From Loxodes magnus (Eukaryota; Ciliophora; Karyorelictea; Loxodida; Loxodidae): DNA of 64,000 bases. The stretch spans positions 372,001-436,000 of the forward strand of contig CAMPDV010000236.1 of NCBI GenBank assembly GCA_946699065.1, in the 5' to 3' direction. A program made the position numbers and the translations under genes. Every line of letters begins with the position of its first letter. Within the stretch, counting starts at the first letter, position 1. A model generated the notes under the pieces. The model worked only from the letters and a program-made list of their open reading frames with translations, was not told the origin of the DNA and ran no database searches. Shown piece by piece: positions 1 to 64,000 of the stretch.

Positions 1-988
1 ACAATTAAAGATGTCCAAATATCTTTTTAGTTTAAATATTAATTTTGATCAATTGCTTAATTAAATTTTCTTACATTTCCTTCTTCTTTATGTTAAGAAA
101 CTAGTACGATTTTTTGATGTCTTAATTTAGATTTTTTTAGATTTGCTTTCTTGCTTAGTGTTCTTTATGAGTTGAAGTGTTGATTGAAAGGGTAATTTAT
201 GGTTGTTGTTATTTAATATAAGAGGTTTGAAGTTGGTTAGGTTTGTAAGGTATTGGAAGAGCTATATGAGATTTTTTGTTTGTAGCTAAAGAGTAAGTGT
301 TTAGGTATTATTGGATGACTATGAGAGTGTTAAGTAATAACTGATAGTACTAGATAAGTTTGGCCTGATTTTGTTAGAAAGGATATGAATTTTAGATATT
401 AGTATGCTTATATTAGTAGCAAATTAGATTTGCTTAATAGCTCTAAATAGGTCTAGCATCTTAATTAAGCTATATAGCAATATAGGATTATTTATTAATG
501 GCTTAGATTCTAAGCATCTATTTAGAATAACTAAACTATTGACTCTTTTATACAAATTGCATAATTTGAATGGATATTAAAAAATAATAAAAAGCTTAGT
601 TTAGATTGCAAATGGCTTCAGTAGCTATATGGCTTTCAGCTTTTTAGATCATTAGATGGCCTAAAATATCTCATTAGGCTACCTTAAGAGATTATAAAGG
701 ATCAATAGATACTCAGGAACAACCAAAGTTAAGTAGATTTATAAATCAAACTCTTTATAAGGGGATTAAGAACCTAACTACTCTACCAAATTAATTAGAC
801 AAGTAAACTACGGATAAATTCCCTATCAATGGAATTTCTAGCTAAAATTATCAATATGGATAGTTTAAAGCAGCAAAAATAGTAAAAAAGAAACTAATCT
901 TTAAGAATAAAGGCTTAAGTTAATATCTAGTAAAAGAGTTGGAAAACCAATTTCAAAAATAAATATATACTGTAAAAATTAAAGCAGC
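1..988. other. No recognisable gene
   Basis: About 1 kb of AT-rich sequence before the 636-bp unit. I found no motif or frame that I would call coding on either strand. It is repeated at 40,727-41,714. Confidence 0.5.
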
Positions 989-1624
989 AGGCTGTTATAG
1001 TTCCAAACAAACAAAATAAGAGCAATTAAATTTAGAACTTATTAAATACCAAATTAAGTGTTTAGTGAGCAAAAAACTATGGAAGTAGTAAAAGATACTT
1101 AAGGAAATATTTATTAAGAAGGATTATAACAAGAAGCCTCGGAGGAATAAAACAAGTATAAAAGGAATTTAAATCATTCAATCAAAAAAATTTACCGATG
1201 TAAGCAATTCTTTGCTGCTTATAAATCAATTTATTGAAATAGTTTCTCGTAATTATTCTGAAAGTTGGCCTTAAGAGTAGATTGTAAGAAATGTCCCTGA
1301 GTTATTGGATATCTTTAGAATAATGAGACTTGTTCATAAGAGAAAAATGTAATGGTAAAAATAAGGATTATAGTTAGTAGATGAGAATAGGAGGCCCAGA
1401 ACTTGATTTTACCTTAAGATATAGTTTAATTATTTTGGAGAATATTCCAGACAACAATGAGATTGAGTATTTACGAATTTTAGAACTTGAGTAGTTTGTT
1501 TATCTTTGTTGGAGCTGTTAGAGGCGATCTCCATTATAAAGGTTTGTATGAGGACTTGGATGAATAAAGTATGAATTATAAAAAGTAGTTAGGAGTCTTA
1601 GATGCTTTAGCATATGATTTAGTA
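989..1624 (+). repeat. 636-bp repeat unit, instance 1 (inside copy A)
   Basis: This 636-bp block occurs three times with no difference that I can see: here, at 17,221-17,856 and at 41,715-42,350. It has coding character but in three successive frames. One frame runs about 1,160-1,390 (with FTDVSNSLLLINQFIEIVSR), a second about 1,380-1,500 (LDFTLRYSLIILENIPDNNE), and a third about 1,500-1,624 (GAVRGDLHYKGLYEDLDEQ). The shifts suggest a decayed gene or unrecognised short introns. I do not recognise the family; the helical Leu-rich pattern would suit the N-terminal part of the NACHT gene downstream, but that is inference. Confidence 0.85.
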
Positions 1625-3640
1625 AGGTAATACTGAAAAGAGAATTTGGAATAATTTGAAGATACCATATTGAAAGCTGGACTTGAGATTTAGAGCATGT
1701 TTTCTTCTAAAAAAGATGATAAAAAATGGTAAAGCTACTCCTAATTAAGGATTCATGTTTACTTTTAGAATATTTAAATAATGATATAAATTGGTAGATA
1801 CGATATTATGCTTTAAAAACATTATTAGAACTAAGTAATGAACAATATACCATGAGTATTTAAATAAAAAAGCTTATTCTAACATGTTAAGTAGCATTAG
1901 ATAATAATAGAGCTATTTACAAATCCAGAGCATGTAAATCACATAAACTATGGAATTGACTGGCACACAGTACAATCTATTAAAATATGATAAAAATTTG
2001 AAAGATGATATTTAAGAGAAAACAGAATATTACGTTAGTTTACTATGTGCACCTAATCCTAATTCCTAGATCTAAATTGAAGAAGAAATTTAAACATTTT
2101 TAGTCAATTAAAATAAAACTGCTTTATTACTTCTTGGGGATTCAGGGAAAACTTTTGAAAACTTTAGCATTAAAGTATCTGGAGTAAAAGCATGAGTACT
2201 TACCTATATACGTAAACCTTCCAACTATTAAAGCATTTGAAAACAATTTAGTAGAATCTGCTTTAATCAACTATTAAATTGAACGAAAATTTGAAACTTA
2301 AGAAGCTACTATTTTTATTAGACGCATATGATGAATTAGGCTAGTATATAGCTATTATCGGTAGCAATAAGCAAAAAATATCCTTAAGCAATATATATAT
2401 GCAGAATTAACTATGACAGCTGAAAACTATAGGAATTTCTATTCTCCTTACAAAAATGAAAAGGCTTAAACATAAGAGTTGGAAGAGTTTTAAAGCTTTT
2501 GATAAAAATTAGATAGAATAATATATAAAGTTATTCATGAGGAAACTAGATAAAGAGCAAAATAAAAATCCAAATACAAGTACAAAGAAAAGTAAATACA
2601 AAATACTGAGGTTAAAGAATATATCAACATTATCTCAAATATTCCAGGATTAATCGATATTTTTAATAATCCATTTTTGTTATATATATGAGTGAAGAAC
2701 AAATAATCAACTATTTAAAAACTATAAAAACCAAAAATATATCTTTATATGGAATGAAAAGATATACAAAAAGTTGCAGGATATAGGTTACGATCAATAG
2801 CAAATCAACTAGAAAAATATTTCAGCATATTTAGATAAGTGTACCATATTAAATGTTAAGGGGTCAGTTAGAGTTAGATAGATTAAGCTACTTAAAAGTT
2901 AATTCAGTAATTTACTGAAAAACCATATAGGATATAAATCAAAAATTAGAACTAAAAGAAAATATTTTAATTTATCCATACTTCGATAAGAGATTACTAT
3001 ATCACAAGGGATACAGTAAATATAGCTCTCAATTTACAAAGTAATAGAAACATCTTTGAGAATCACCATATAAATAAGTATTCTATAGTGGACACTTAGG
3101 AGATCTAATAGTTTGTGAAATAAATAATTAAAGTGAATTCTAATAAAATTTGTTGGAGATAGTATAGTTGACAAAAGAAAATAAGAAGTTATAATAGGCA
3201 GCTACTAACTGTATTTCGAAAGTGAAATGGATGGATTATCAGTTAAGGCAATAGAACCTTTCAGATTTATAAGAAGCTGAAGCAGATTTGAGTGATTCAG
3301 CATTTGACAGTTGTGATTTGAGAAATTCTAATCTGAATAAAGTTAATTTCAGTAGAGCATGATTGAGGAAAAGCAACTTTAATAATGATAAATGAGTTAG
3401 GATAATTTTTGTTAATCGATAAAGTTAGTAAGTCATATTAGTTATGCTTGTTCAGTAGTTGTAACTAATGAACAAAGATTTCTAATATAAGGAAGTAATG
3501 ATAAAACAATTTAAATAAAAGATTCTAAAACAGCAAAGAAGTTTTTATATCTATAGCTTTATAAAAAATGTAAAAATAATGAATGCTAAGATAATCTGAA
3601 GAAATTTAGTAAGATATTGTTTGTAAGTTTTACATAAGAA
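1625..3640 (+). pseudogene. NACHT-type STAND NTPase with pentapeptide and WD40 repeats, decayed (copy A)
   Basis: NLR-like STAND ATPase remnant. In order: a HEAT-like stretch (about 1,745-1,830, NWQIRYYALKTLLELS); a NACHT-type P-loop region with a damaged Walker A (about 2,125-2,155, LLLLGDSGKTF, two residues short of GxxxxGKT); then, after a frame change, YLPIYVNLPTIKAFENN; a Walker B (about 2,305-2,340, LLFLLDAYDELG); NIPGLIDIFNNPFLLY (about 2,640-2,690); and the conserved FIHTSIRDYY (about 2,970-3,000). Pentapeptide repeats follow at about 3,240-3,400 and one WD40 blade at about 3,430-3,530 (GSNDKTIQIKD). At least four frame changes mark it as a pseudogene unless short introns explain them. 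The family couples nucleotide-driven oligomerisation to a repeat sensor. Any immune or self-recognition role is inference. Confidence 0.8.
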
Positions 3641-4066
3641 AGAATATAAAGAATAAAACATATTATTAAAGAAGATCTTGATAGTATGTAAAAAGTTTGT
3701 TATTCCAAATGAAGTAACTTTATTGCGATATTATGGAATTATTGAGGAACTGATTATTTGGGTGTTAAAAGGTAGATATAATTAAACATGATTGCTATAT
3801 CTTTTACAGTTTGATATTTCTTTTGTTTATTCTAAATATTATAAGTTTATTAACAAGCATATTTATAGAATTCCTATTACTTCACTTTTAAAAATGTTGT
3901 CTAACTTCACGGAACATTTGGTTCTAAAATAATCTCTTTTAAAGTCTATTATTAGAATGACAGAAAGTATAACTTTCATTTTATACATTTTATAACTAGA
4001 TGTAAACTAGTTTATGTCAGAGAACTACAGTAAGGTTTTTAAGTGAAGTAAAACATATAAAATTAA

Positions 4067-4147
4067 GACACTATGGCCGAGTGGTTAAGGCGACAGACTT
4101 GAAATCTGTTGGGTTCTCCCGCGCAGGTTAAAATCCTGCTGGTGTGG
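4067..4147 (+). tRNA. tRNA-Ser(UGA), possibly a pseudo-tRNA (copy A)
   Basis: An 81-nt cloverleaf with a serine-type long variable arm (GGG TTCT CCC). The anticodon loop CTTGAAA gives anticodon UGA, reading the Ser codon UCA; it is not a suppressor of UGA codons. The A box TGGCCGAGTGG is canonical. Two oddities: the T loop reads TTAAAAT instead of TTCGAAT, losing the near-invariant C56 and changing the B box to GGTTAAAATCC, and the first acceptor pair would be G-G. A TTTTT run follows at 4,148-4,152, suitable as a Pol III terminator. The B-box change makes function uncertain. Confidence 0.85.
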
Positions 4148-4159
4148 TTTTTAGTAAAG

Positions 4160-5860
4160 TCTTAATAAGAAATGATACTTATTGTAGTGAAACAATTAAT
4201 TATAGATGCCCTTGTAGCCTAGGAGTCTATAACTACTTTTAGAATGAATAAAGTAATTTCCAAATTAAGATTATAAACTAAGCAAAATAACTAAATGATT
4301 TGTAAAATAAAGGTAAAAAGAATTAATTAAAAGAAGTTGCTAAAGAAATATACGATAAAACGAGAGTAGTGCTAGTTATAGTTTATGAAGATGATGCCAA
4401 AATAATACTTAATTAGTTTTATGAGTTAGGAGCAAGAGAAGGCGATTTTGTCTTTATATCTTTTTCATGGCTTACATTAAGCTTTATTGATTAAGATGCT
4501 GAACAAATGAAATGTAAGAAGTTATTAAAGGAGCAATTTAATTTGAACCTGCAGGAATTTAAGGAGAATTTGGATAAGAAATAAAATAATAGTTTTAGAA
4601 TTATTTTGGAATTTAGTAGATAAATAGCTTATACTGAATTTGATGGAGTACTATTAGGAGCTTATGCTTTATAAAGTTTAATAAGGATCAAATTATACAG
4701 ATTAATCAAATCTTTAGAAAGCAATAAGAAACGTAAAATTTATCGGCTCTACAGGAAAAGTAAGGATCTATTATAACTCCAACGATAGAACCTCAATTCA
4801 ATGAATAATTTAGAACTATAGGAAAAACAATTAAAGCCAATGATAAATTTAGAATATAGGATTATATTGTCTCACTTGTAATGTCGTTTTTAGTTTCAAT
4901 TAATAGTTTATGTGAGGAGATGGAAGTACTGGGATCTTTTAAGATAGCTGATAGTTATCATGTCCTTTTAAAGAAAGGGAAAGAAAATAATTAAAAAATG
5001 GATAAGTAATTAAGTATGCTATATTAATCACAATGGTATTTATATAAGTGGTGGTTTCTTTATTGGAAATAAAAGCAAATTACAATTATGAATTTGTTAA
5101 GCTTGAAAGAGGATTTGTAATGTCTACTTGAGACTTTATTTATATCTTGCATTTACTTTTATATTTCTTATAGATTGTATCAGTAGGAGCCTCTAGCTAG
5201 GGAAATTTGGTATAGTTGATTATAAACTGCGTTAAATTAGACTTTGTAAATATTTTAGTTGATTCGAATAATAAGCAATACTCTAACTATATAGTTGCAT
5301 GTATTTTTGCTGTTTTATGAATGATATGCTTTTTATCTATCCTACTTAGGCTTGAGTTTTCAAGATGAACAATTTTCTATTTAATAGGAAGCGTATCTTA
5401 TTATATAGGGCCTTTCTTAACTTATAGCTTTTTTCTCCCTTTAAATTTTATGGATCTGTTTATTTAGGAGTAGATTGAAATCACGATGGAAAAATACAAT
5501 TTTGAGAATCGTTTGATTATAAAGATTGCAGCTGAAAATGCTGATAAGGAGTTCATCTTAAGCTTGTAATTTGATGTTGAATCTGCTTTTTAATTTATTA
5601 AATTTATGGAACTAAAACAGTTCTGATGTGGAGCTTTATGGATGGTTAATGAAAGTAAAATATAAAAAAAGTGACTTAGTAATTTTAAGAGTCCTGCTAA
5701 TAGTATTATGTTCCTTTAACATTGTTTTATAAAAGTAGAATAAAATAATACATGCTGTGCTTTATCTGTTAGCTATGCTTTTTCTTTTCTATTATACTTA
5801 TAAGTCGAATCCATGTAACTATCCGAAATTGGGAATTGTTATATTTCTTTCTTATAATAT
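4160..5860 (+). pseudogene. Receptor with periplasmic-binding-protein-like (ANF/class C type) ligand domain and membrane region, N-truncated (copy A)
   Basis: Second half of a type I periplasmic-binding-like receptor domain followed by hydrophobic segments, as in class C GPCRs and ANF receptors. Visible landmarks: VVLVIVYEDDAKIILNQFYE and GDFVFISFSWL (about 4,350-4,475), KGAIQFEPAGIQGEF (about 4,525-4,575), FDGVLLGAYALQSLIR (about 4,635-4,690) and the hallmark FIGSTGKVRIYYNSNDR (about 4,740-4,790). Membrane-type segments lie at about 5,290-5,460 (YIVACIFAVLWMICFLSILL, then YYIGPFLTYSFFLPL). The first half of the ligand domain is absent because the tRNA and the NACHT remnant lie directly upstream, and several frame changes occur, so I call it a pseudogene. 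The end is uncertain: the frame crosses a TGA near 5,625. Confidence 0.7.
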
Positions 5861-6479
5861 TAATCATGCTGTAGTTTAAATTTTTAGAATATCACTTTCT
5901 TCATTTTATATGAAAGAATTTATATAAGTTTATAGGCTGCTTAATTACTAGTTTAGTAGCCTATAAATTTCAAACCAAATATAAAACCCCTATTACTATT
6001 TTCGAGTTGGACGAAACATATTTATTCAGATGATCATTCTAATGCAAAAATAGAATCTACTTTACTTTTACATTTACAACTAATTAACCTATCTTAATTT
6101 TAGAAAATACTTAGCAGAGAAGTAAGGATTAAGGAATAAGACTTATGAATTTAGATAAAATTATTAATATAATTTAAACATTATAGCAATATACCTATTA
6201 CCAACTAACTACTTTTAGTTACTTCTTTATTTCATCTATTCATACTTTTAAATCTATTTAACACAAAATATCCAAATTATACTAATGTAAAACACCAGAA
6301 AACTTACAGAGTCATTAATTGTTTTATTAAACCAGAAATACTCAAGAATAATATTGGCTACTTAAATTAATGTAACTATTTAAGTTTATAAGCATTAAAG
6401 TTTTTAAAATTCAAGCTTTATACATTTCCAGATCTATTTCTAAGTTTAAATATTTTATATATTTATATTATTATTATCA
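5861..6479. other. AT-rich spacer, nothing recognised
   Basis: No motif or convincing frame on either strand. The TATTA run near 6,460-6,475 is 3 bp shorter than in copy B (near 47,195). Confidence 0.5.
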
Positions 6480-7355
6480 ACTATAAGTTTTATAAATGTT
6501 TGCTTTCATTGGAATTTCAGCCAGATCCAGCTATCAATTTTTATTGAATTTGGATTCCTCGACCATTTTTTTATGTGGATAGTTACAATCCTTAACCATC
6601 TCACTTAGATCTGTTCTGTGTCAAATATTTTTTTTTAAACTCCATTGCTATTTATAAAAAATCTTGTTTACTATTTAGGTCCTTTAATTATCTTGCTTTT
6701 TAAGCATTTTGCAATCTATGCAGTTTTATATTAGATATTGTAAAGAATTGCAATATCTGCTCCTCTTTAATTTATATTTCTGTTTCTATTTCGGAATAAT
6801 AAAACTCTCAAATTTTTCCAATCTTTTGTTATTTTAATTCTTTAAATTTTATTAGTAGTTACCTTATTAGTTACGATATAATTCTTAGTTTCTTCAGTGA
6901 TAATTGGAATTTCCTTAATTTAATTGCTTTAGGATTAACACCACAGTTTTTTTCTGCTAAGACTTTGCTTTAAACAAGTTATTTCCATGAATAAGTCATT
7001 TTTAGGGACAATTACTCAACTTGAGACAATTCTCTTATTCTATCTGAAAGAATGTAAATTACCTCGTCCTGCTTGTTGAGAATTTTCTTAATTTTATCAT
7101 AATGTTTAGATATGGATTCATTTCCTGTTCTATTAATGAAGTTCTTTCCTAATTTCCTTACAGTTGTTTGCCTTGAAAAGATGAGGAAGATTCCGATGGC
7201 TTTTGCTTTTTCTCTTCAATTCTAGCTTATTTCATAATCTTTCTTTGCTAAATTTTTGATGCCTTAATATTCTCCATTTCATACCAAGCTTTTATGTTTA
7301 TATAAATTACAAATGAAAAAAAAATTAAGAATAATATTCTTTTAAAAAATTTCAT
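6480..7355 (-). pseudogene. Decayed ORF with signal-peptide-like start, family unknown (copy A)
   Basis: A minus-strand ATG at 7,355 opens a hydrophobic N-terminus (MKFFKRILFLIFFHL) that looks like a signal peptide or anchor. Protein-like sequence continues downstream but moves between all three frames. Examples are a Lys/Glu/Ser-rich stretch near 7,200 and a heptad-like stretch (ILNKQDEVIYILSDRIRE) near 7,050-7,110. I do not recognise a family. The frame changes, and a different frame at the copy B start, suggest a pseudogene or many short introns. Confidence 0.35.
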
Positions 7356-8149
7356 ATTTACATAAAAATTAATCTTATACACTTTATTTTTATTATTTTT
7401 ACTATTTATCTAATAAAATATCTTAATTTTTTATAAAGATAATCATATTCAATTTTATTGTATTTAAAAAACACTTAATAGAATAATCAGCTTAGTCTAA
7501 ATATAATTATCTTTAATCTAGGAATTTAATATTCTAATATGAGTAAATTTTAACAATTGTAAGTATATTTAATTTAATAGCAAAGAATCATTTTTTAATA
7601 CTTTTTTCATAATAAATAAATAAATTATTTTTAGTATTTCTATCTTTATGCATCATTATCAACTATGATGATATAATTTAATTTTTAATTTATTTTAGTT
7701 TGCTTTATTATGATTTTCTTTCTAAAAATTAAAATGTGATTTTTAAATTTAATTATATACTTTGCTTCTTACAAGCTGTGTTATTTCTATTATTCAGTTT
7801 AAAAATTTACTTAATTTTGCTATATTTCTAAATTTATCATATAAACAAATAAATTCTTCATTGAAGGAATATATTTTTAATTTTGATTTATTTTTAATAA
7901 AGGATTTCAAACCTTTTTTATTAAATTAAAGCTATTTTTATGAATCTGCTTAAATGAGGGATTTAAAAATTAACCTTTCATACTTTTAAACAATGATTTC
8001 ATATACCATTTTTATAACCTTAAAATTACTTAATATAATAATAGATATTAAAATTTTATAATTAATAGCAGTGAAATAAATCATAGATGTATTTATAAAT
8101 TATCTAAGTAATTATTATTTAACTAAATGTAAAATAAATATTTGAGAAC
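7356..8149. other. AT-rich spacer, nothing recognised
   Basis: Very AT-rich with long T and A runs; no gene seen. The copy B equivalent is about 48,089-48,880. It carries a TTA microsatellite (48,826-48,846) that is reduced to three units in copy A near 8,112. Confidence 0.5.
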
Positions 8150-8803
8150 CTTAGGTTTTCAACCAGATATCAACGGAAAATTTTTTTTCGTTGTTGTATT
8201 CCACGATTTTTTTCATAAGGGATGATTACCACAAAGGAATCTCTTAGTTTCTTATGAATAAATTTTATTTATAAAATCGAGTTCAGTAATTCAAAGCTTA
8301 TTTAGGTTTCTTCAGGATCTTTGATCTTCATTGTGCTTGAGTAGCCTTCATTCTTTGCAATGTCTTAGTAGGTGATATTTAGATTGACAGTACCAACAAT
8401 TTTTATATAACTTCTCAGCTTTCTTCTTTGGATAAATCTTTCTTTCTAACATTTCACTTTTGCTTAGGTTTAAATCAATTTGTTCTTAACTTTATTTTTC
8501 TTAATGCACCTGTTAGTGTAGATCTTCTTTTATAATCATTCTTTGCGATTATTTGAAGTTGGATTAAGACATTTCGTAAAGTTAAATTTCTGTTACTAAA
8601 CTATTTTTTATCAGTTAACTTTTAAGAATTAGCGATTCGTTATTTTAATCTTCTAAGCAGTTCATTAGCTCCCGGATTTTTTCTCCTTGATTAAAGAAAA
8701 TTTCTTCATATTTCGCAATTTATGCTTTCATTTGTTCAATTTAATTTTAGAGTAATTTATTATTTTGAACTCTAGGATTAACTTATTCAGTAAGGCCGAC
8801 CAT
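8150..8803 (-). CDS. Coiled-coil protein with CCHC zinc knuckle (gag/LINE-ORF1-like), Z1 copy A
   Basis: Starts at ATG 8,803. About 130 residues rich in Gln, Lys and Glu with heptad-like spacing (from MVGLTEQVNP) lead to a CCHC knuckle at residues 136-149: C136-x2-C139-x4-H144-x4-C149, in KNCWYCQSKYHLLRHC. Such knuckles bind single-stranded nucleic acid and are typical of retroelement gag or ORF1 proteins, but no RT is adjacent, so a domesticated gene is possible. Two TGA codons follow the knuckle within 20 codons and a third soon after. Any could be Trp or stop, so the 3' end is approximate. It lies just downstream of a related gene on the same strand (8,985-9,745). Confidence 0.65.
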
Positions 8804-8984
8804 TATTTTTCCCTCTGAAGATGAGCTGGACTCTCGATTCTGTCTTTTTTTTTAGTTCCTCAGCAGTCGTTTGCTTTCTTTCTTTTCTTTTTCAATTCTT
8901 TGAAAGTCGGATGTTCTACTCCATTTTTTTAATTATTATAAATTATCTAAATTATTAATAATATTAATAATAAACTAAATTAAG

Positions 8985-9745
8985 TGTTTGAGGCTTCGAG
9001 GAATCTCAATCTCATTTCCACTGCTAACCAGTGATCATTCCTGGAGGTTTAAAATAAAAATTCGGGTCATCTAATTTTTTCAGAATTCTGTAACTCGATT
9101 GTAAAATTGTCTTTCTGTAGATTCTTCCGTCCATCGTCACATAAATTCTTGCTAATTCTCTTCATACTTCTTCGCTGTTTCTCTTCATCTGTTCCTTGTA
9201 TATCTTACATCTCTTGTAATTATGGAATCTTGATTAACACAGGTAACATCTCTTGAGGATTCTTCTAATATTGGTTGTTTCTATTTGCCTATCGTCTTCT
9301 ACTTCCATTTTTATTTCTTAGATTAAAGGTTCTATTCTTTTTTGCTCAAGTTGCTTTACTTCTTTTTCTTATTTGACTAATCTTTCTTCAGTGTTTTAAC
9401 TTTTTTCTAATAATTTTTTGTTTTCTTACAGAATTCTAGCAGATTTCAAAAGAGTTTCAATTGGTATTTATTCTTCATTTTCTGTTTTTGCATTATCGGA
9501 TTTCATATAGCTACTTGGTCTTGGCTTAGTAAGAAAGTAAATATTTTATTATTCGTTTGCTTCTGTTTCTGTTTATTTAAGTTCTTATTTTATTTAAGAT
9601 TGTCTTTGATTTTCTACTGTTGTAGGTTAAGAAAATGATTATTTGACTAAAGAAGACGTGGCGGATGAAGAATTAGAAGTTTCTGGTTTTTGCTCGTTTA
9701 TCTATCCTGGAAAAGAGCGTTCTTACGTTGTGGGATTTTTGAAAT
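8985..9745 (-). CDS. Coiled-coil protein with CCHC zinc knuckle, Z2 copy A
   Basis: One frame runs from about 9,745 to 8,985. A Ser/Thr/Gln/Glu-rich region, including the first in-frame ATG at 9,506, leads to a heptad-like Lys/Glu stretch and a CCHC knuckle near 9,205-9,255 (RCYLCQSRFHNYKRC, spacing C-x2-C-x4-H-x4-C). A C-terminal region with DGRIYRKTILQ follows. The protein-like sequence extends upstream of the ATG with no further ATG for about 300 bases, so an upstream exon is possible. Paralogue of Z1 (8,150-8,803) and of 28,980-29,735, where GQIYRKKF matches GRIYRKTI. Late TGA codons (near 9,000) make the end uncertain. Confidence 0.7.
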
Positions 9746-9779
9746 GATCTAAGTTATTAAGATAAATTAGAATTTTGAT

Positions 9780-21720: not shown

Positions 21721-21860
21721 ATCCTATTCTAATCCAATAAAAGGAAATCTAGCATCTAAAAGATTACTTTTATCTAATAGATAAAACAGACTACTAAGAA
21801 TAAGACTGGAATAAGTTATCTTTTTTGTAAGAAACTAAATAGACATCAATTAGTATGCTT

Positions 21861-35029: not shown

Positions 35030-37740
35030 AGGCGAAGTTGAATAGAAGTAGTCTTAGAGCTCAGCCTTTAAGACCTTATCTCTAATTTTCTTTATTAGTT
35101 ACACTCTATTTGAGACGTTAAGAGATTTAATGCTTTAGCCTAGCAGATAAACTTTCCTCTCAGTTTTCTTTAAAATTCTTCATATTTTTTTCGTTTATTA
35201 ATGTCCATGGTGCACATTTTCTCTACTTAAATCATTTTTATAATCCTTTTAAAATGTTTCTTAAGTTTTCTTAATTAATTTCATCTAGGAAAATATTTAA
35301 TTGATTTTTCCTATTTTTTTTGATTCAGTCAAAATTTTATTCTTGCTTCTTGTCTCAAATATAATTATCAATTTCTTACTATCCTTATCTAATTAGATAT
35401 TTTACTTATTTCGCCTACTGATAGAATCTTTTCTTAATTTTATTGCTTCTGCTGTATATTAGTACCTTCTCATTTAATTTATTACAAAGCCATATATAGT
35501 TTTGGTCGCTTCTTAGATGTATTCTGATCATTTGTCATAGTATGCTTAACTATCTAAATTTTCGAATTCGCTAGATCTATTTTCTCGAATCATTATTTGA
35601 ATTTCTTTGAATCTTCTATAGCTTTAATTTTTGAAAGCTTATCCTTTTAATTTATGGGCTTTTTCGACATTCTTCCGCAATTTTTATCTTTATTTGCCTG
35701 ACTAATAATCTTCTATTGGTCTCTATTAAAAGAATTTTGTGCTGATAATGTTAGGTGTGATATATTGATCATTAAGAAGTATTCTATTTTGAATTTTCCT
35801 TTCCCTTATGTTGTGATGAAGGTTGGATCTTTAAATCTAAATGATAATCTCTCATCAAGTTAAGTAAGTATTAGCCTGCATTATTCTGCTCATATGGTAA
35901 AAATTGGGGAATATGCGCACTAAAATCCCCTAATATTAAAATTTATAATCTTTTGCTACTTGCTACTATTATTTATTATTATAGACTTTCTTAAAAGGTT
36001 ATTAGTTAATCAGAGTCGGATCTTGTAGTGCATATATGCTTATCAAAGCCAGCCGATCATTAAGTGTTAAACCTATTAATCTTTCTCTCTAAAATAATTC
36101 CACTTGATTGAGATCCGCAATGTCCAATACTTTGGTTCTGTAGGTAATTCCATCTTTTATATAAAATGCTACTCCTTTGCTGTGTTTTGTGTTCAATTTT
36201 ACTATTGCTCTGAATCCATATATGTAAGGCATTTCAGCAGTTTGATCTCTAAATATTTCTTAAATCGTCAAAAAACTTACCTTCTTTTCACACTTGAACT
36301 TCTTTAGATCTTCCTTGCTTGATTTTATTTATCTGACATTTGCTGTGCCTATGTTTAATTATGTCTATTTTATAATACTAGTATTCCCTTGTACTTCCTA
36401 TTTTTCTAGATCCTACTATCCTGTATTTTTAGCTTCCTCTTCTTTAATAGAATGAAACCAAAATCTTTTTTTAAGTTTACTACTTTTCCTGTACTTATGT
36501 CTTCATCTTTTCTACTTGATAGTATCTTCCTTGCCATTGTATTTTATTTTCTATCTTTTTTGAGACAGCTATGTGTTTATGCATACTTCTTCATGTCACT
36601 GTTTTCTAGTTGTTTCAGTTTTTTTTGCCATATTTCTTATTTTTTTTCTGTTTTTTGCGGCGTTGTTAATTTTTTCTCAGTTTTTATTTATTTAATTTTG
36701 TAGTTAGGTATCTATTAAAGTCAATCTGATTTTAAAGTAACTTTAGTATGGCTTAAACTTGATGCTTTTGCTAGAAATTCAAAGTAATATTTTATTTGAA
36801 GGTTAATCCTCTTCAGTTTTTATTCACTTTTTTCCTTCGCTATCTGTTTCTCTTTATAGTAAGGTATTTTCTTCCTAATTTTCAACCTTGTTTTTACTTT
36901 CTTAGCATTTTAATTACTCACTTTATAGCTTTTTTTCTTAAGCCTTAATTTGTGCATGCCCTTTTTGATTATAGTTCATACATTTTCAAATTGATGGATG
37001 ACTCAAGTAAATACTTATACCTCCTTCGTCTAACTTATTTGGTATACTTTCTGCAACTTTGATCTCCTTCAATTCTAAATTAGTTTTCATTTTCCCATTG
37101 GCTCACGTTGTACCTTTTACGGTTCCAATTTCTGTACATACTTTTTTTCCGTACTGGTCCGATTATTTTTTACCTTGTTCAAACTTGAATAAATGTTAAG
37201 TGCTCAATAAATCGGGTAGTTCTTAATGTTGTAGAATTCTCCCATATTTCTTTGCTCTGTTGGTATTTAAAAATTTCTACACTTCCATGTTTAATTATTT
37301 CCGAATTGTTTAAGTGTTTCCTTATTTTTGAATCATATAATAATTATTCCTTTCTGAAGGATATTCACATTCTCAATATTTTTGCCATATTCTTGATTCA
37401 GATTTTTGAGAATTGCTTGAACGATTTCATTTCTTGCCTTTTTGTCGGACTAAATCTTTGGTTGTAGTATTTTTTTTTAAAATTTATTGAAATAGGTAAC
37501 TCCTACCCTTTTAGCTGCTTTGAACGACATATTCTCGTCCTCATTTTATGGCATTTGCTGGTTCTTTTCTTCCTACATTTTAAAGATTTGCCAAAAGCTT
37601 TTTTCTTATTAAATGTTCTAAATTACCTACTTTTTTTGATAAGAAGCTTAATTTTAAGATTTTTGTTCCCTTTTTCTTAGTACTTTCCTCCTAGTATTTT
37701 AAAAATTTTGCGGCAGAGACGTTTTTCTTAAAAATAAATC
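35030..37740 (-). mobile_element. LINE fragment with ORF1 and APE-type endonuclease but no RT (LINE B)
   Basis: Minus-strand non-LTR element. ORF1-like part (about 36,700-37,740): an RRM-like stretch NEIVQAILKNLNQEYGKNIE with KGIIIIWFKNKETLKQFG (about 37,330-37,470), then a decayed knuckle WKCMNYNQKGHAQIKA (about 36,930-36,985) in which the second and fourth Cys of CCHC are lost. Endonuclease part (about 35,740-36,440): GVAFYIKDGITYRTK, LISIYALQDPTLIN and the signature LILGDFSAHIPQF (about 35,905-35,945), then NSKIEYFLMIN. A frame change just before GDFSAH, and others, show decay. After the endonuclease a Lys/Gln-rich linker runs to about 35,030 and the sequence leaves the element before any RT. 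Loss of the 3' half is unusual for LINE insertions, so a later deletion or rearrangement is likely. Confidence 0.75.
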
Positions 37741-37972: not shown

Positions 37973-39418
37973 ATGTAAGCGTTACCAAAATGCTTAATCT
38001 GCCTAGAAGATTACAACTTAACTAATGCTCTTCCAACTGTCTTACCTTGTGGACATATTTACTGTGGTTTGTGTTTGAATACTCAGTACTGATTATAAGG
38101 CATAATGTAATGTCCTATTTGTTAAAAAGGATTCCATTTTAGATTTGAAGACTTAGCTTAAGAAAGTGATTTAATAAGAATGATATTTTAAAACTAATAA
38201 TACATATAAAAGATTTAAGATGCTAGATAGAAATTAAAAGAAACCAAAAGCTAAATTATGCAAAAATCTAAAACCATTACAACCAAATTATCAAACATTA
38301 CTAATACTCTCATAATACCATATACTAATATCATCCAATACACTACCATTAACCTACTTTTATCTACAACTAATAACACTCAAATATTATACAATCATCC
38401 TAATTCCCTATTTACTAATATCTAAAACCAACTAAAATCTAATATAACATAAGCAGTCTAACTATATTCCACTATATAACCAGCTTTAATACAAAAGCTA
38501 TCTAAATTAACTTAAAGTTAAATCTAACTAATAAGATAGAAACTATAATACAATACTAAGTAGGAAAAATTAAATAACAGTAAAGATAAACTAACCTAAC
38601 ACTTTATATCATCCTATATTCACTTTTTTAATTACTTTATTTAAAAATTAAGTTTATTTAATATTTAAACAGAGTAATTAAGATAAATCCAAGTTTAAAT
38701 TATAATTCCTGATGCTAGCAAAAGTATAGAATATTAAAATAAGTTATATTTAATTGGAGGATATTACTAAAATTAAAATAAAAGAATAAAAGAAACTTGA
38801 TAATTTGATTTTGAAGGTAATAATATAAAATTTAGTAATCTAAATGAGGGAAGAGATAGCTTTGGAATAGCAGCTGCTTAAAATTATCTTTATGTGGTTG
38901 GAGGAATTACTAATAATTATCAAGTTTTATAATCAGTAGAAAAGTTAAAGATAGGAAACTAAAGTAAATGATAAAACTGCTCTTAATTTCCATTCTAAAT
39001 AGCAGGTTAAGTTTTAGTAGTAGATAAAGATGAATAAAATATTTATTCTTTTGGAGGTGTAAATTAGAAAAAATAATACTTAAAAGAAATATTAAAGTAT
39101 AACATATAGAATGATAGATGGATTAAGTAAAATTTGAATCTTCCTGAAGCTGTTGCTTCTCCTATAGTTTCTTTAGAGCCTTTTGTCATATTTGGAGGTT
39201 TAAAAAAATATTCTACGAAAGAATATTCAAGAAGAATATATAAAAGAAACAAAGAATAATGAGAATAAAGTTAGATTTTTAAAGATATTTTAGCTTTAAC
39301 GGAGATGAAAATAAGAGGTAACTATGGATATGTTTTTGCTATAGAATAGCCAAGAATTTCAATAATGAGGATTGATTTAGAAAAATTGAGTTATAGAAGT
39401 ATAAAAAGTCATAGCTGA
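37973..39418 (+). CDS. RING-Kelch protein, intact
   Basis: The cleanest gene here: 1,446 bases, one frame, 481 residues, ATG 37,973 to TGA 39,416. A canonical C3HC4 RING occupies residues 7-50 (C7, C10, C26, H28, C31, C34, C47, C50; PTVLPCGHIYCGLC and QCPICQKGF). A Gln/Lys/Asn-rich middle, partly Ile/Asn/Thr-rich, runs to about 250. Kelch repeats follow from about 255: LYLIGGYY, LYVVGGITN, IYSFGGVNQKK, DRWIKQNLNLPE, FVIFGGLKK. TAA/TAG are read as Gln throughout and four internal TGA as Trp (for example QYWLQG), while the gene still ends at TGA. RING-Kelch architecture suggests an E3 ubiquitin ligase with a Kelch substrate-binding propeller; that role is inferred from the domains. Confidence 0.93.
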
Positions 39419-44787: not shown

Positions 44788-44868
44788 GACACTATGGCCG
44801 AGTGGTTAAGGCGACAGACTTGAAATCTGTTGGGTTCTCCCGCGCAGGTTAAAATCCTGCTGGTGTGG
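44788..44868 (+). tRNA. tRNA-Ser(UGA), possibly a pseudo-tRNA (copy B)
   Basis: Identical to the tRNA at 4,067-4,147, including the unusual T loop TTAAAAT, the G-G first acceptor pair and the trailing T run. The change therefore predates the duplication or the two loci have been homogenised. Confidence 0.85.
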
Positions 44869-44879
44869 TTTTTAGTAAA

Positions 44880-49533: not shown

Positions 49534-49724
49534 TATTTTTCCCTCTGAAGATGAGCTAGACTCTCGATTCTGTCTTTGTTTTTAGTTCCTCATCAGTCGT
49601 TTGCTTTCTTTCTTTGCTTTGTTAATTCTTTGAAAGTCGGATATTTTACTCAATTTTTTTAACTATTATAAATTATCTAAATTATTAATAATATTAATAA
49701 TAAACTAAATTAAGTGTTTGAGGC

Positions 49725-50493: not shown

Positions 50494-50519
50494 TGATCTA
50501 AGTTATTAAGATAAATTAG

Positions 50520-56500: not shown

Positions 56501-56709
56501 ATTTTGTCATGCAATTAAAAACTAATAAACTTTTAATTAACTATTAGTTGCTTCATCTTAGATCTAATTTTATTATTTCCATTCTTATTTATTTCTAAGT
56601 TCCATAAGTAGGATATAACTTCTATTCCTTGCTATATTCACTTAGAATAAACCTAATTTTTAATCTTTTTAGTTTATAAGCAAAGAAACTATTTTCTTAT
56701 CAAATCAAA
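50520..56709. other. ~6 kb AT-rich block without recognisable genes (copy B)
   Basis: Counterpart of 9,780-15,957 and nearly identical to it by eye. The exception is about 53,045-53,340, where substitutions and 1-2 bp indels cluster. I assign no gene. Confidence 0.5.
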
Positions 56710-59700
56710 ATGCTACCCTTGCTTATACTCCTTGCTATTCTATTCAAAGCTGACTCTCTAAATGTACTTATAGTAAGTTCTCCACATACAATTCCTTACA
56801 TTTCAGATGCTTTAACTTATCAAATTTACTAGAGTAAGTTTGAATAAACTAACTTTTAACTAATTCCTTTATACTTAGAAAATTAAGACTTTTAACTAAC
56901 TGAAATTGAAACTAAAATAAGAGTTTTAGACATTTAAATCATTCTTGATATTAGCTTCAATCACTTTTACACACAAACAATTAGTTAGTTAAGTAAGCTA
57001 TGCCTTTATTGCTTATAGAAGCGATAAATCACTTTAAATCCAAAATCTTTACTAAATAATGCCAACCTATCAGTAACAAGGAATGCCTCTGCAAACTCTA
57101 TTTCACTAAATCTTAAAAAAATATCTTACTTAAGCTAGTAGGAGTACACCTTTTATAAGCCAAGTCAATACTTTTATCAGACCATAATAAGAATAAGTAC
57201 TTCAGTTCATATTCCACTCAATATTATGGCTTTAATTAAAACCAATGTCAAAATACTTCAATCCAAAATACCCTGTTCAATGAAGTAAAGCTATCACAAT
57301 TATCTTAATACAAGCAGATATATGCTGATAGGCCTTTATTTTAAACCTACCAACATTTTACTAAATGGCCAGAAGTTAGTATGCATGAGTAATAGGACTA
57401 GAATCATCAAACTTAATAAAAGCTGAACTAACTCAGTTAGTTTAAGAAAATTCCAAGATTCATTTAAGTATTCTAGATAACGGAATGATCGCTTTAACAC
57501 CAAAATAATTTATTCCAGGAAACTATTTGGAACTAACTGCATATTATGTTTTAAGAACCTTAAAATTCATAGATTATATCAATTAATTTAGAGATTTCAA
57601 CTTGGACAAAACTTATCCTGAGTTTTTCAAAATATATAAAAGCTTATTCTTTAATCAAAAAAGATAGATTTTAGCAGAGTTTTCAGTTTATAATGTATAG
57701 AACAAAGAGCTTATAGAGGTTTATTAAATAGTTAACAATAATATTGTTTAAAAATCATCAATTATATATTCTGGCCCTAGCTCCATCCCTCCACTTGATA
57801 AAATCACAATTTAAATGTCTTACTCTACTAATGATAAAGAAAAAATGGCCAAAAACCTTATTTGGCGATTACAATTCCTCCTCTTCATATTCCTTGTTTC
57901 ATTGATTATATAAATAAAGATAAAAGCCTGCTCAGTAACTATTTGATAAGAGCTAATCCTCTTTCTTATGGAGGATTGAGATACAATATTAGTTATACTT
58001 TGTAAGTGTTTGTAGAAAACTACTTTCAAATAGGAGTTGCTCGTTTAGGAAGCTTAGTGATATCAAGCTGACTACCAGCTTATTATGTGTTATAAGCAAT
58101 GAATGTGATAATTCCATATACATATATTAGTAGAGAAGATGAACTACAGAACATTTAAGTGCACTCAAATGCTTTTAATAATTATATCTCTTGGAAGTTC
58201 TTTGGAGATATGTACATTAAATAAGCTTAGAAAAATAAATTAAATAGCTTTGGATTATTTTTACAAGAAATAGAACCTTCTAACAAGAAAGTTCATGACT
58301 ACATTAAATAATAAGCCTAAAAGAACAATAAAAACATCCTTAATACCAATGAAACTACTTTTATTATTAATGTTCTTACATACGATTAAGACTATTATGA
58401 TAAGTTAGCTTGATAAATAATGCAAAAAGAAATAAAAATCATACTAGATTTTCCTGTTATAAATGTAATTAAATCAGTTAGTACCAAATTAAAGAAAATT
58501 GGATGAGAACCAGGTGATACTAATTTTATTATTTTATATACGACTAACGTAAATGAAAATTCAGCTGATGACGTTAATCAATTATAGAGGATAAAAAAAC
58601 TTTTGCAAGGGTCAATGACTATAACGCCAATTGAGTATATAGGAGAAGAAGGACAAAAGATTAAAGAAATTCAAACTGATTGCTTGGATATTCAAATTTC
58701 ATCATGTTACTATGTAGAAGAAACTCTTATAATAGCTCATGGAATTTCAAATTGCATCAACCAAGGTTAAGATTATTCAAACCCTCAAAGCATGAGATTT
58801 AATAAATTTGTAGGATGTAGTGGAAATGTGAAGTTTTAATAGAGTAATAATTTTAGAGGAGATTTAAATTTTTATTTTATTAACAATGTATATGATTCAG
58901 AATGAAATTTATAGTTAGTACCATATCTTGAATATTGCCCAATATGTGCTATTGTTTGGATTTTCCTAAAAAGTTCACCACTTTGAAATGATAATACAAC
59001 TCAGACTCCTTCTGACATATTTCCAATTTATAATGAAAACTGCGATTTTTTTGAACGAAAAGTAAGGATTCACAAAAGGATATCATTTAAATTTAGTTGG
59101 AATGCTAATTATTTTAATTTATACTCTTATTATTACAATTGCTGGATATAGAATTTGAAACAAAATAAAATTACCAAATTTAGAGAAAGAATTATGACTT
59201 TCAAATTTAGATCAATTATTTACCTTTTTATTAGTCATAAATTTGCTATAGATTTTAGCTGTTGGGCCAAATCTTTCTGATTTATTAATAAAGAAGTAGA
59301 CATTTTAATAAAAAGCTTTGTATTTGATATAATTGGATTTAATTTTCCAATTGAAGTTTTTTTAACCTTATTTTATTTATGTGTAATCATTGCTTTTGTT
59401 ACCATCATTTTTATTTAGGTTTGAAATTATCTTCGAGGATAAATGTTTCTTTATGAGATAACTAGGAAGTCTTTCATTTAATTTGTCTCTAGTTCTGACT
59501 GAAATCACATTTTCGCCAGTTTTGTATATTTTATTGAAACCTTTCTAGTGTATGTATGGAAGAGATGAAAACATTGACTTTTAACTCGATTGAAGTGAAA
59601 GTATACTGATGTCAGATTGTTCAACAAGCTGCTTCTCGCAGGTCCAGATTATTGCTTTTGTTTTGTCTTGCTTTTTTTAGGATTTTATTTAGCAATGACT

Positions 59701-60653
59701 ATTGTTTCATAGGCACACTGATAAGATTTACATGAATACTTGCACATTAAATCCTAAATTGATAATAATAAAGACTTATTTGGAAATTTAGTTAGTAACA
59801 TTAAATAAACTAGGTAAGGAAAAATAGGAAATTGAGCATAGTTTGATTTACTCGTTTCTAATAATTGGTCTTTGAACTTTGAAGGTAAAGGGTTTCACTT
59901 ATATTTTGATGTTTGTTTGTTTATGATATTTTATAGCTCATTAATAATAAAAGTATTGGGTAGCTCTCATATTTATATATTTATTATTTACTCAATAGGC
60001 TCAGCTATCATCCTTTCTTTAGGTGTGATCTATTAAAATTACTTTCCTAATGTTCTAAAGTAACTGAAAGCTGACTTTTTAGATTTGCTTTTAGACCTTG
60101 GGCTAATATTTGTTTGGTAAGAGAAAATATGGGAATTGAGCAGAGAAGAATTAGTTTAATGAGAAAGAATTTATATTTAAATGTTGAAAAATCAGAAACT
60201 GTCTAGCAAGAGAAATTAAAATCAGCGCTTCTTTAAGCAAGAAAACAAAGTCTAATATAAATAAAAAATTTAGATATGAACTTGCCTATGAAGAATGAGA
60301 AAATGCCATCTAGGAAATAGAAATTGAAAAAGAAAAAAATTAAGATACTACAAAAGTAGAAAGTGGCTACTCAATGGAAATTATTAATCATTTAGATAAT
60401 TCAAATTTAAACATAAGCATGTAAAGTATAGAAATTCCCGATTAAAATAAAACAGATTAAAAATTTATTAAGATAAGTGATTAAAATTAAACACATGAAA
60501 ACCAAATTAGATTAAGTAGCCTAAATGAAGAAAAATAAAATAAATCAATGAGTAAAAACATTTCAAGAGCTTTAAGAGAATTTGGATAAAGATGATCAAT
60601 CTATAAATAATAAAGGAATTATTTTTATAGAAAGCACAGAAGAAGTAATCTGA
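56710..60653 (+). CDS. Membrane receptor with periplasmic-binding-like (ANF/class C type) ligand domain, multi-pass region and acidic tail
   Basis: Begins with a signal peptide (ATG 56,710). The ligand-binding domain spans about 56,750-58,960: AYYVLQAMNVIIPYTYI (about 58,070-58,120), WKFFGDMYIKQAQKNK (about 58,195-58,240), LDFPVINVIKS (about 58,445-58,475) and the hallmark KFVGCSGNVKFQQSNNFRG (about 58,805-58,860). Hydrophobic segments follow, such as MLIILIYTLIITIAGY (about 59,100) and further ones to about 60,060, then a Glu/Lys/Ser/Gln-rich tail ending FIESTEEVI-TGA at 60,651. Several TGA codons are read as Trp. Its length is not a multiple of three: frames change near 57,842 (1 bp shorter than copy A), 59,060 and in the tail, so introns or lesions exist. 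Likely a surface receptor; the ligand is unknown. Confidence 0.65.
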
Positions 60654-60740
60654 AAACACTTATTTTATTAGCTAAGATATGAAATAATTTTTAAGATTTA
60701 AATAAAACCTAAAATCTATTAAATAAATAAATTTGATTAT
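60654..60740. other. Short spacer between receptor stop and LINE C 3' end
   Basis: About 90 AT-rich bases separate the receptor TGA (60,651-60,653) from the LINE C hairpin. The element's 3' end therefore sits close to the receptor's 3' end, in convergent orientation. Confidence 0.5.
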
Positions 60741-60775
60741 AAAGAGTGTAGCACCTCGTTGGTGCGCAGCTCTTT
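60741..60775 (-). repeat. Hairpin at the 3' end of LINE C
   Basis: AAAGAG (60,741-60,746) pairs with CTCTTT (60,770-60,775). Inside, GCACC (60,751-60,755) pairs with GGTGC (60,761-60,765) around the loop TCGTT. A 4-by-4 internal loop separates the stems. It is by far the most GC-rich point nearby and lies just downstream of the LINE coding region on the minus strand, where some LINEs carry a structured RNA recognised by their own RT. That role is inference. Confidence 0.65.
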
Positions 60776-60779
60776 AATA

Positions 60780-63700
60780 AATGTTTCAATACATGTCTAT
60801 TTCTTCAAGTAAGCCTTCAGGTAATAAAAATTTTTCTCTTTTCAGTTCCATATCTTCATCATTTTCTTCTTCAATATCTCTTGTTCTTCTGTCTTCTATC
60901 TATCTACGTTTTATTGATTCTTTGTTACAAGTGTCATTATTTTTTTTACATACTTTGCTAATTTTCGTTTCTAATTCTTTTCTTCTTAATCAAGCTTTTA
61001 TAAACTCATAAAAACTATCCTTTTCCTGCTCTATAATCTTTTCTTATTTCTTTTTTTCATTCAATTTTCTTTTCTAAGTATCCTTTTTTTCTTTTTTCTA
61101 ATATGTTTTTGATATAATCTTTTATTATCAAGTCAGTTTTAGCTCTTTTTTACTTTTCTTAGGTTCTAATGAATTTTTCGAATTTTGCCGTACCTCATAT
61201 TATATCAAATAGTTCCATTCCTTGTCTTTCTACTCCTATTGTTCTTAACTTTCTAATACATATTTATCTACTTTCTTTGTATTCTGAGCATTTTTCTATG
61301 ATATGCCTTTCGTTTTCTCTTGCATCATTACAGAAAGGGCATTTGCTTGTCGCAACTAGGTGTCTTTCTTTTAAACAATCCTGGCTTCCATTACATCTCG
61401 TTCTTATTCTAAATATGTAGCATATTTCTTCTTTTCTATTTTTATTGTATCTCAGGTAGTTGGGTGGGTGGTCCTACTACATATTCATCAAATCATGTTT
61501 TTCTATACTGTAGAGTTGTTATCATTTACTCCATCCTTTCTCTATCTTCTATGTATACTCTATGTACTCAAATTACACGATTAATTTTTTTTTTCCCTTT
61601 TTGATTATTATTACCATCATCTATAAATATATTTTTGTCTTCAATTTTTAATTCTAATTTTATTTTTGTGCAGTATTGTTCAAAAATGAAGTTCTCTTCT
61701 TTACTTAGGTCGAACATTAATCCATCTACTGTTTTTCCTTAGTTACCTATTAGTCTGCCTCTTAATCTCAGCGTTTTCTGCCATAGGTAATATTTGAATT
61801 TCATAAACTGTAACTCGTATTCTAGCATCTCATTTTACACTTAGAAAGGGGCATCTATGATTGCTCGTAAAGATCTTCTCTATATTATTTCTAATTTTTC
61901 CATCACTTATTTTCCTACAAATTATTCACAATATGGGATAACTTCTGTCCCATAGCTGAATACTGAGCTTACGAACATTTTTACCATTATTCCTGCGTTA
62001 TATGGTGTTAATCCCTTATTCATTGTTATTTTATCAGTATTCATGTTTACATCTTTTATGCTGCTTCTAGTCTGTTCTCCATGTGTTTTTCAAAGATGAT
62101 GGTCTCTTCTATTATATGCCCTAGGTACTAAAAGGACGTTACTCTTTCGATTCTTAAATTTCCCACCTCAATAGTATTGCCTATATTTTCTCAGTTTCTA
62201 TTTTCTGCTGCTTTTCATATCATTCATTTTGTTTTATCTGCAATTTCCAGTTTGTATTTTTCTGCCCATGAGGTTAAATTTTTGATTACTTCCTCTAATT
62301 ATTCTCATTCACTTATTAAGGCTAGGTCATCTGCATATGAAAAACATCCTGCATATATTTCTTGTGTTCATCCCTCTTCATTTTTAAAGTCTATCGTAAT
62401 TCCAAGCTTTTAATCTTCCAAGCTATGGAGAAGTCTTGCTATTATTAAGTTAAATAGTCTTGGCGACGTTATGCTTCCCTGATTTATTCCTTTATTTGTC
62501 GCGAATGATTTTGGTATTTATTCATTGATTTTAAGTTTAATTTCTTCTTCACAGTAGAAGTTTGCTAGGAGTTTAATTATCTATTCCGGTACTTTTAGAT
62601 CGTTTAGGATTTATCATATATCTTTTCTTTGCGCCGAGTCGTACGCTTTTTTAATATCAACAAATATTACGAAAACATCTTTTTTGTTCCGTATTGATCA
62701 TTCCTATACTGTTCTTAGGTTGAAAATTTATAGTGAGCATGATTTTTCTTTTTAAAGCCATATTAATATTCGCTTTCATCATTATGCAGATATCCTTATA
62801 GTTGCTAGAAAATTCATGCATCTACTTCTTTTAAAGCATGATTCAGTAAAGAGATTGGTCTATAATTCATCGGGTTCATCTGTCCTCCTTTTTTGTATAT
62901 TAATATTATGTATTATTATTTCATCTCTTAAGGTATTACTCCCTCTTAAATCATCTTAACTATCATTTTACATGTTACTTCTGTTAGTTTTTTCCCACCT
63001 GCTAATATTGTGCCTACTTGTATTTCATCAGGTCCTGGTGCTTTTCATTTCGCCAATTAGTTGATGATTTCTCAAATTTCATATTCGTTTACCACTATTT
63101 ATCTCTTGTTTAAGAATTTAGTTGGTAACGTATTATCGCCATCTTCATACAGTTTCTATCATTCATCCCTGAAAATATTAACATCTTCTTTTAATAAGGG
63201 TACTCATTAATTATTTTTTCTATTAAGTAAGCTTTTTAGTTTCTTCCACAAATCTGTTAGACTTCCTTTATTTACATTGTCCATAAATAGGTTTAGTTAG
63301 TTTCTTTATCTTTTTTTCTTGATTAAATGTATTCTTATCTTACTCTTTGGTATTCTCTTTGATTCTCAATTTATTGATTTTAATTTATTTTTTCTCTGTT
63401 CTTTACCCTTTATTTTAATTGTTTGCTGCATTTTCTAAAGATTTTATTACACTATTTTGTTGTTTCTGAATATTTATATATTTTAGAGTTTTATGTTTTG
63501 AATTTTCCACAAACTATTTAAACTCCTTCTTATATCTTTTTCTTTCATCATTTATAAGTCTATGTGCCGTTTAGGTTATCAATTTCTTCTTCTTAGAGAT
63601 TTTCTTGTATAAATCTTTCAAATTTTTCTTATATCTCTTTTTTCTTTAATAGTAGGTAGTTTATTTTTGCTATCTTTTATGGCTTTCTTACTTCTTTACC

Positions 63701-64000
63701 CATCTTTACCTATATAATACCAGGCCTATGGTCACCTATTACGTATGAGTAATAAAAATCACTATTAACACCTTTTCTCTCATTCTCTCTTCGATTAAAA
63801 ATTAATCTATTTTATATCATTGTTTTAGTGAATAAAGGTACCTATTTCAGTTGGGTCTAGGCATATGAAATTATTCTGTTCCATAAACTGTGTCATTCTC
63901 TTTCCTGCTGAGTTTGTTTTCTTTGGCAGTCATTTTTCTATGTGCGCATTTCAGTCTCCTATTATCATTATATTAAGTCATCTTGCATCTTATTCTTTTT
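60780..64000 (-). mobile_element. LINE with APE-type endonuclease and reverse transcriptase, near-complete, 5' end outside window (LINE C)
   Basis: Minus-strand non-LTR element. Endonuclease: MIIGDWNAHIEKWLP (63,925-63,962) and, after one frame change, YVIGDHRPGII (about 63,730-63,765). RT in order: PGPDEIQVGTILAGG (about 62,995-63,035), NYRPISLLNHALK (62,830-62,875), motif A FVDIKKAYDSAQR (62,625-62,665), GINQGSITSPRLFN (62,445-62,500), the catalytic SYADDLALIS (62,310-62,340) and FQYLGHII (62,115-62,135). A C-terminal finger, KCPFCNDARENERHIIEKC, lies at about 61,285-61,340. TGA encodes Trp at the conserved GDWNAH position. All catalytic landmarks are present; only one clear frame change was found, so it may be recently active. 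It inserts by target-primed reverse transcription, as known for the class. Any ORF1 lies beyond 64,000. Confidence 0.9.

What the first reader, a model, noticed from the sequence alone, without database searches (positions are those of the whole stretch)
1..64000. All three standard stop triplets are read as amino acids; TGA is both Trp and the apparent stop
The longest standard-code frame is 89 codons, yet TAA/TAG as Gln gives clean proteins. TGA falls where conserved Trp is expected: LINE C endonuclease GDWNAH, and a knuckle codon that is TGG in Z1 copy A (about 8,390) but TGA in copy B (about 49,127). The RING-Kelch gene uses four internal TGA yet ends at TGA, as do the receptor (60,651) and the Kelch remnant (32,319). 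The code type itself is known (karyorelict, or Condylostoma-like); its use here is what the sequence shows.
Basis: partly seen in the sequence, partly recalled or inferred. Interest (0 to 1): 0.75.

Follow-up and report, generated by a model that had tools for sequence, protein, structure and literature searches.

The report
Ciliate code with dual-use UGA
This DNA is most likely from the ciliate Loxodes, whose published genetic code reads all three usual stop signals as amino acids and also uses one of them, UGA, to end proteins, so the reading is right but already known.

Summary
The code claim is correct and already published. The window lies in a 705,730,643-bp assembly, the size given for the Loxodes magnus macronuclear assembly (706 Mbp), whose paper states table 27: UGA is the only stop and can also be Trp. 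Both eRF1 genes carry RAQNIKS / FLCENTF / Ala70, the row printed for Loxodes striatus.

In a codon-to-residue test on four host genes elsewhere in the assembly, TAA faced Gln 9 of 36, TAG 6 of 17, and masked TGA faced Trp 3 of 5. Both eRF1 genes end at TGA. tRNA-Trp(CCA) has, by position, a 4-bp anticodon stem, as already reported for Loxodes.

Much in-window evidence is weak. Open frames are no longer than in shuffled sequence. Copy B of the zinc-knuckle pair has lost the first Cys. Masked alignments of the LINE RT, RING and Kelch are inconclusive. The RING-Kelch gene, with four internal TGA and a terminal TGA, is the best in-window case. The tRNA-Trp(UCA) search did not complete.

The parts
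37973..39418 (+). RING-Kelch gene under table 27: in-frame TGA at 38090, 38798, 38969, 39260 (read as Trp), one TGG at 39119, apparent stop TGA at 39416, 52 codons after the last internal TGA
   Evidence: Pfam Kelch E 2.2e-16, RING E 2.4e-9; codon positions; GC 0.24 in the frame, 0.10 in the next 60 nt. TGA-masked PDB alignments, read by hand: TGA 38969 faces Trp in 8pjw and Thr, with Trp one residue off, in 8pjx; TGA 38798 faces Glu in both; TGA 38090 faces Ala in TRIM25 and Ser in RNF4. TGA 39260 was outside the printed alignments.
60599..63999 (-). LINE remnant, frame-shifted; RT domain with in-frame TGA in one frame, endonuclease piece GD(TGA)NAH in another
   Evidence: RVT_1 E 7.7e-23; Exo_endo_phos_2 22.8 bits, below cut-off. 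TGA-masked RT against R2 protein 9nl2: three TGA face Gln, Met and Thr, one falls in a gap; the one facing Thr lies beside a Trp that HMMER placed as an insertion, so this is inconclusive. Genome copies hold 3-9 TGA in the RT match (150 scored of 3403 candidates).
36128..37150 (-). second LINE remnant (endonuclease piece)
   Evidence: Exo_endo_phos_2 E 8.2e-4, below Pfam cut-off; coding-score segments
8200..8458 (-). zinc-knuckle ORF, copy A (CWYC...; TGG at 8395); the counterpart in copy B near 49127 has TGA there but also Leu for the first Cys
   Evidence: codon comparison of the two copies
9062..9638 (-). second zinc-knuckle ORF (CYLC...), copy A; differences from copy B include CAA/TAA and CAG/TAG
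   Evidence: TGA present; no Pfam match in three + frames at E 0.05
   Evidence: TGA present; no Pfam match in three + frames at E 0.1
4237..4692 (+). ANF_receptor (ligand-binding) domain, duplicated copy A
   Evidence: Pfam E 3e-8; no PDB match at E 0.01 for 4123-5000

Best explanation
The window is macronuclear DNA of the karyorelict ciliate Loxodes (most likely L. magnus) and uses the published karyorelict code, NCBI table 27. UAA and UAG are Gln. UGA inside a gene is read as Trp by a tRNA-Trp(CCA) whose anticodon stem is shortened to 4 bp, competing with an eRF1 of UGA-only type that carries Ala at the Ser70 position. A UGA close to the mRNA 3' end is taken by eRF1 as stop. Shown here: the codon-to-residue preferences, two eRF1 genes ending at TGA, the tRNA stem by position, and the eRF1 residues. 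Inferred from the literature: UGA reading by the 4-bp-stem tRNA, the effect of the eRF1 residues, and the choice of stop by distance to the poly(A) tail.
For: Assembly size 705,730,643 bp fits 'MAC 706 Mbp' and table 27 in PMC11441545. eRF1 motifs RAQNIKS, FLCENTF and Ala70 in both paralogues equal the Loxodes striatus row of Table 2 in PMC4695839. Codon-to-residue table over 1493 aligned positions, TGA masked as X and UAR entered as Gln: TAA-Gln 9 of 36 (P 4e-6), TAG-Gln 6 of 17 (P 2e-5), TGA-Trp 3 of 5 (P 1.5e-5), TGG-Trp 9 of 14. Both eRF1 paralogues (60 of 436 codons differ: 41 silent, 19 not) end at the same TGA, and by eye a 1-nt difference breaks the frame a few codons later. tRNA-Trp(CCA): 130 pattern hits against 19 for the reversed pattern; 97 of the 100 listed rows are one identical 29-nt match. 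ARAGORN on 11 of the 30 fetched loci: every tRNA found (in 8 loci) is Trp(CCA), and L012-L014 have none. The top anticodon-stem pair (linear positions 26 and 42) is A.C, leaving 4 bp.
Against: Two of 5 aligned TGA face Ser and Asn. Counts are small and come from outside the window. UAR had been entered as Gln when those alignments were made, which leans the UAR counts towards Gln. Terminal TGA other than in eRF1 were picked as the first TGA after a conserved domain, so they fit by construction; in a sixth gene (RMND1 homologue) the end is unclear. In-window masked alignments are inconclusive. RNAfold's best structure for the tRNA is not the cloverleaf. Species identity rests on assembly size and eRF1 motifs, not on rRNA.
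Confidence: 0.95

Rival explanations
1. Condylostoma-like code: all three triplets are both sense and stop.
For: All three triplets occur in-frame in genes here; in C. magnum the eRF1 is inferred to recognise all three as stops (PMC4967479, passage).
Against: The two eRF1 paralogues end at TGA, and UAR codons stand close to the chosen ends without ending them (TAA at -2 in KAT, UAR at -4 in ABCA), though those ends were chosen as TGA. The published code of the matching organism has UGA as the only stop.
Confidence: 0.03
2. UAR-only (or standard) code with decayed genes: in-frame TGA are plain nonsense mutations in repeats.
For: The window holds frame-shifted LINEs; open frames are no longer than chance; TGA sites differ without visible constraint between the duplicate copies.
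Against: Conserved host genes elsewhere in the assembly carry TGA at Trp sites: ABCA transporter twice, kynurenine aminotransferase once.
Confidence: 0.02

Closest known systems
Karyorelict nuclear code, NCBI table 27, as described for Loxodes magnus (PMC11441545; section 9 and passages read)
   Same: UGA the only stop and also Trp, AT-rich sequence after the stop, abundant LINEs, assembly size
   Different: nothing found
4-bp anticodon-stem tRNA-Trp(CCA) of Blastocrithidia nonstop and Condylostoma magnum, reported also for Blepharisma and Loxodes (PMC13092985 and PMC12005148; passages read)
   Same: CCA anticodon, top stem pair unpaired (here A26.C42 in linear numbering)
   Different: the unpaired bases differ (26C.42U in B. 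nonstop, U26 and C42 in C. magnum by those passages); here in large tandem arrays, which the passages read do not mention
Loxodes striatus eRF1 (PMC4695839 Table 2; passages read)
   Same: RAQNIKS, FLCENTF, Ala70
   Different: two paralogues 34.9 kb apart on one contig here

Membership tests
Karyorelict code (table 27) | UAA and UAG encode Gln | tested here: met
   15 of 53 aligned UAR codons face Gln, P 1.7e-10; UAR was entered as Gln for the alignment. CAA/TAA and TAG/TAA are the only UAR-involving differences between the eRF1 paralogues.
Karyorelict code (table 27) | UGA encodes Trp inside genes | tested here: met
   3 of 5 aligned TGA face Trp with TGA masked, P 1.5e-5; small sample
Karyorelict code (table 27) | UGA terminates at gene ends | tested here: met
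   both eRF1 paralogues
Karyorelict code (table 27) | UAA and UAG are never stops | tested here: inconclusive
   six gene ends looked at: ends other than eRF1 were taken as the first TGA, so they are no test; one (RMND1) is unclear
Karyorelict code (table 27) | coding UGA depleted for about 20 codons before the stop | tested here: inconclusive
   nearest internal TGA at -52 (RING-Kelch), -106 (KAT), -131 (RMND1), -655 (ABCA), none in the two eRF1 genes; too few genes, ends partly chosen
Karyorelict code (table 27) | tRNA-Gln with UUA and CUA anticodons | not tested
   planned; the genome machine did not answer
[quoted passage not shown]
   by position in the C67 copies; RNAfold does not return the cloverleaf
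4-bp-stem tRNA-Trp(CCA) mechanism | no tRNA-Trp(UCA) | not tested
   the pattern search was sent 28 times and never answered
4-bp-stem tRNA-Trp(CCA) mechanism | eRF1 change at Ser70 | tested here: met
   Ala at the position of human Ser70 in both paralogues; Gly in Blastocrithidia
Condylostoma code | UAA and UAG also used as stops | tested here: inconclusive
   not seen at either eRF1 end; no wider unbiased test was run

The most novel reading that the evidence does not exclude
Loxodes tips the tRNA-versus-eRF1 contest at UGA by gene dosage: the 4-bp-stem tRNA-Trp(CCA) is held in two tandem arrays of about 50 listed copies each (periods about 187 and 241 bp), set against a duplicated eRF1 with Ala70.
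Probability: 0.15. Interest if true: 0.4.

Novelty: already known. Interest (0 to 1): 0.13.

Why it matters
Mainly annotation hygiene: anything predicted from this window must be translated with table 27, and frame openness must not be taken as evidence of a gene. How one codon can be both sense and stop is a real question, already studied in these ciliates. The tandem arrays of tRNA-Trp(CCA) are the one feature that the passages read do not mention.

Tried and rejected
Open-frame length as evidence: rejected, no longer than Markov simulations. The knuckle TGG/TGA pair: rejected as evidence, since copy B has lost the adjacent Cys. Within-family LINE comparison on 8 loci (amino-acid letters only): one copy has Leu and one has Cys at a TGA column, and two copies have TGA where others have Gly; recent copies look unconstrained, so uninformative. 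TGA-masked RT, RING and Kelch alignments: inconclusive; Trp residues of the relatives often lie one residue off the masked TGA. The Pfam match on C2 (L009), first taken as eRF1, is Pelota; eRF1 is L010/L011. A paralogue search for the 57.9-60.7 kb stretch inside the window gave nothing usable. Pfam scans covered parts of the window only. Planned but not done because the genome machine stopped answering: tRNA-Trp(UCA), tRNA-Gln(UUA/CUA), histone H4 ends, a kinase-wide codon test, 39 further LINE RT copies. RMND1 homologue in L014 (Pfam DUF155): one TGA stands where I recall a conserved Trp, but there was no PDB match, so it is not counted.

Full report
Identity. The window is G000:C236:372001-436000 of a 705,730,643-bp, 7843-contig assembly. 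PMC11441545 (section 9 and passages read) gives the Loxodes magnus macronuclear assembly as 706 Mbp and states that karyorelicts, Loxodes included, use table 27, with UGA the only stop and also Trp when far enough upstream of the poly(A) tail. The two eRF1 genes of this assembly (L010, L011) carry RAQNIKS and FLCENTF, with Ala where human has Ser70. Table 2 of PMC4695839 (passages read) prints this row for Loxodes striatus. No rRNA comparison was made.

Observation. The longest standard ORF is 89 aa. Openness carries no information: with TGA as the only stop the longest frame is 522 codons against a mean of 474 (375-628) in 20 Markov simulations; with all three stops it is 118 against 106 (89-127). 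The RING-Kelch gene is real and has four internal TGA, one TGG and a terminal TGA. In alignments made with TGA masked and read by hand, TGA 38969 faces Trp in 8pjw and Thr, with Trp one residue off, in 8pjx; TGA 38798 faces Glu in both; TGA 38090 in the RING faces Ala in TRIM25 and Ser in RNF4. In the LINE RT, three TGA face Gln, Met and Thr of the R2 protein 9nl2, the last beside a Trp placed as an insertion, and one falls in a gap. The zinc-knuckle TGG/TGA pair sits next to a Cys-to-Leu change in copy B, and two further TGA of copy A are TTA and TAA in B. No Pfam domain backs the 'receptor' ending at 60651 or the 'Kelch remnant' ending at 32319, though both TGA are there. An ANF_receptor domain does lie at 4237-4692.

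Test on host genes. Four proteins lay in loci brought in by the eRF1-domain and tRNA-pattern searches, so they were not chosen for TGA: kynurenine aminotransferase and Pelota (L009), eRF1 (L010) and an ABCA-type transporter (L013). Each was aligned to one PDB chain, the first listed (for eRF1 the second, human), with TGA masked as X and UAR entered as Gln. Over 1493 aligned positions TAA faced Gln 9 of 36, TAG 6 of 17 and CAA/CAG 5 of 24; TGA faced Trp 3 of 5 (the others Ser and Asn) and TGG 9 of 14. Trp was the most enriched residue for TGA (P 1.5e-5) and Gln for TAA and for TAG. Entering UAR as Gln leans the UAR counts; TGA had no such help.

Termination. The two eRF1 paralogues differ at 60 of 436 codons, 41 of them silently. 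Both end ...DEDFL-TGA and have another TGA three codons on; by eye a 1-nt difference breaks the frame shortly after that. Neither has an internal TGA. GC falls from 0.33 to 0.18 and 0.25 in the 60 nt after the stop. For KAT, ABCA and RING-Kelch the first TGA after the conserved part was taken as stop, so they fit by construction; UAR codons at -2 (KAT) and -4 (ABCA) lie before those ends. For the RMND1 homologue in L014 the end is unclear.

Reader of UGA. A tRNA-Trp(CCA) pattern hit 130 times and its reversed control 19 times; 97 of the 100 listed rows are one identical 29-nt match, on C67 (48 rows) and C148 (49 rows), the other 30 hits being unlisted. ARAGORN, run on 11 of the 30 fetched loci, found only Trp(CCA) genes, in 8 of them, and none in L012-L014. 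In the C67 copies the top stem pair is A.C, leaving 28U-42A, 29C-41G, 30G-40C and 31A-39U in standard numbering; one copy lacks a base in the D arm. The 5' half of the C148 copies was not read. RNAfold's minimum-energy structure is not the cloverleaf. The 4-bp-stem tRNA-Trp(CCA) has been reported for Loxodes (PMC13092985 passage; PMC12005148 passage), and Ser70Gly in Blastocrithidia eRF1 is tied to UGA readthrough (PMC12153298 passage). Kachale 2023, Seah 2022 and Swart 2023 were not read. The search for tRNA-Trp(UCA) did not complete, so its absence is not claimed.

Verdict. The mechanism parts found here are also in print. The tandem arrays of tRNA-Trp(CCA) and the eRF1 duplication are not mentioned in the passages read; whether other tRNAs are arrayed too was not tested.

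Noticed in passing
window 1-17223 and 40727-57974: 17.2-kb direct duplication at 97.8% identity with mosaic divergence: kilobases without a mismatch beside 500-bp blocks with 37-44 mismatches. Gene conversion, partial recent exchange or a haplotype mosaic in the assembly are possible.
   Followed up: partly
window 989-1624, 17221-17856, 41715-42350: a 636-bp unit present three times at 100% identity, one copy beginning where block A of the duplication ends
   Followed up: no
G000:C67:482324-491201 and G000:C148:155465-168697: tandem arrays of tRNA-Trp(CCA) genes with identical matched parts, about 187- and 241-bp periods
   Followed up: partly
L010, L011 (G000:C196): eRF1 is duplicated 34.9 kb apart; the proteins are conserved and both genes have a second in-frame TGA three codons after the stop
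   Followed up: partly
window 4067-4147 and 44788-44868: tRNA-Ser(TGA) genes in both copies of the duplication
   Followed up: no
window 22211-22684 +: weak dihydroorotate dehydrogenase match, E 0.0015, below Pfam cut-off
   Followed up: no
window 3279-3386 +: pentapeptide-repeat match, E 1.5e-5
   Followed up: no
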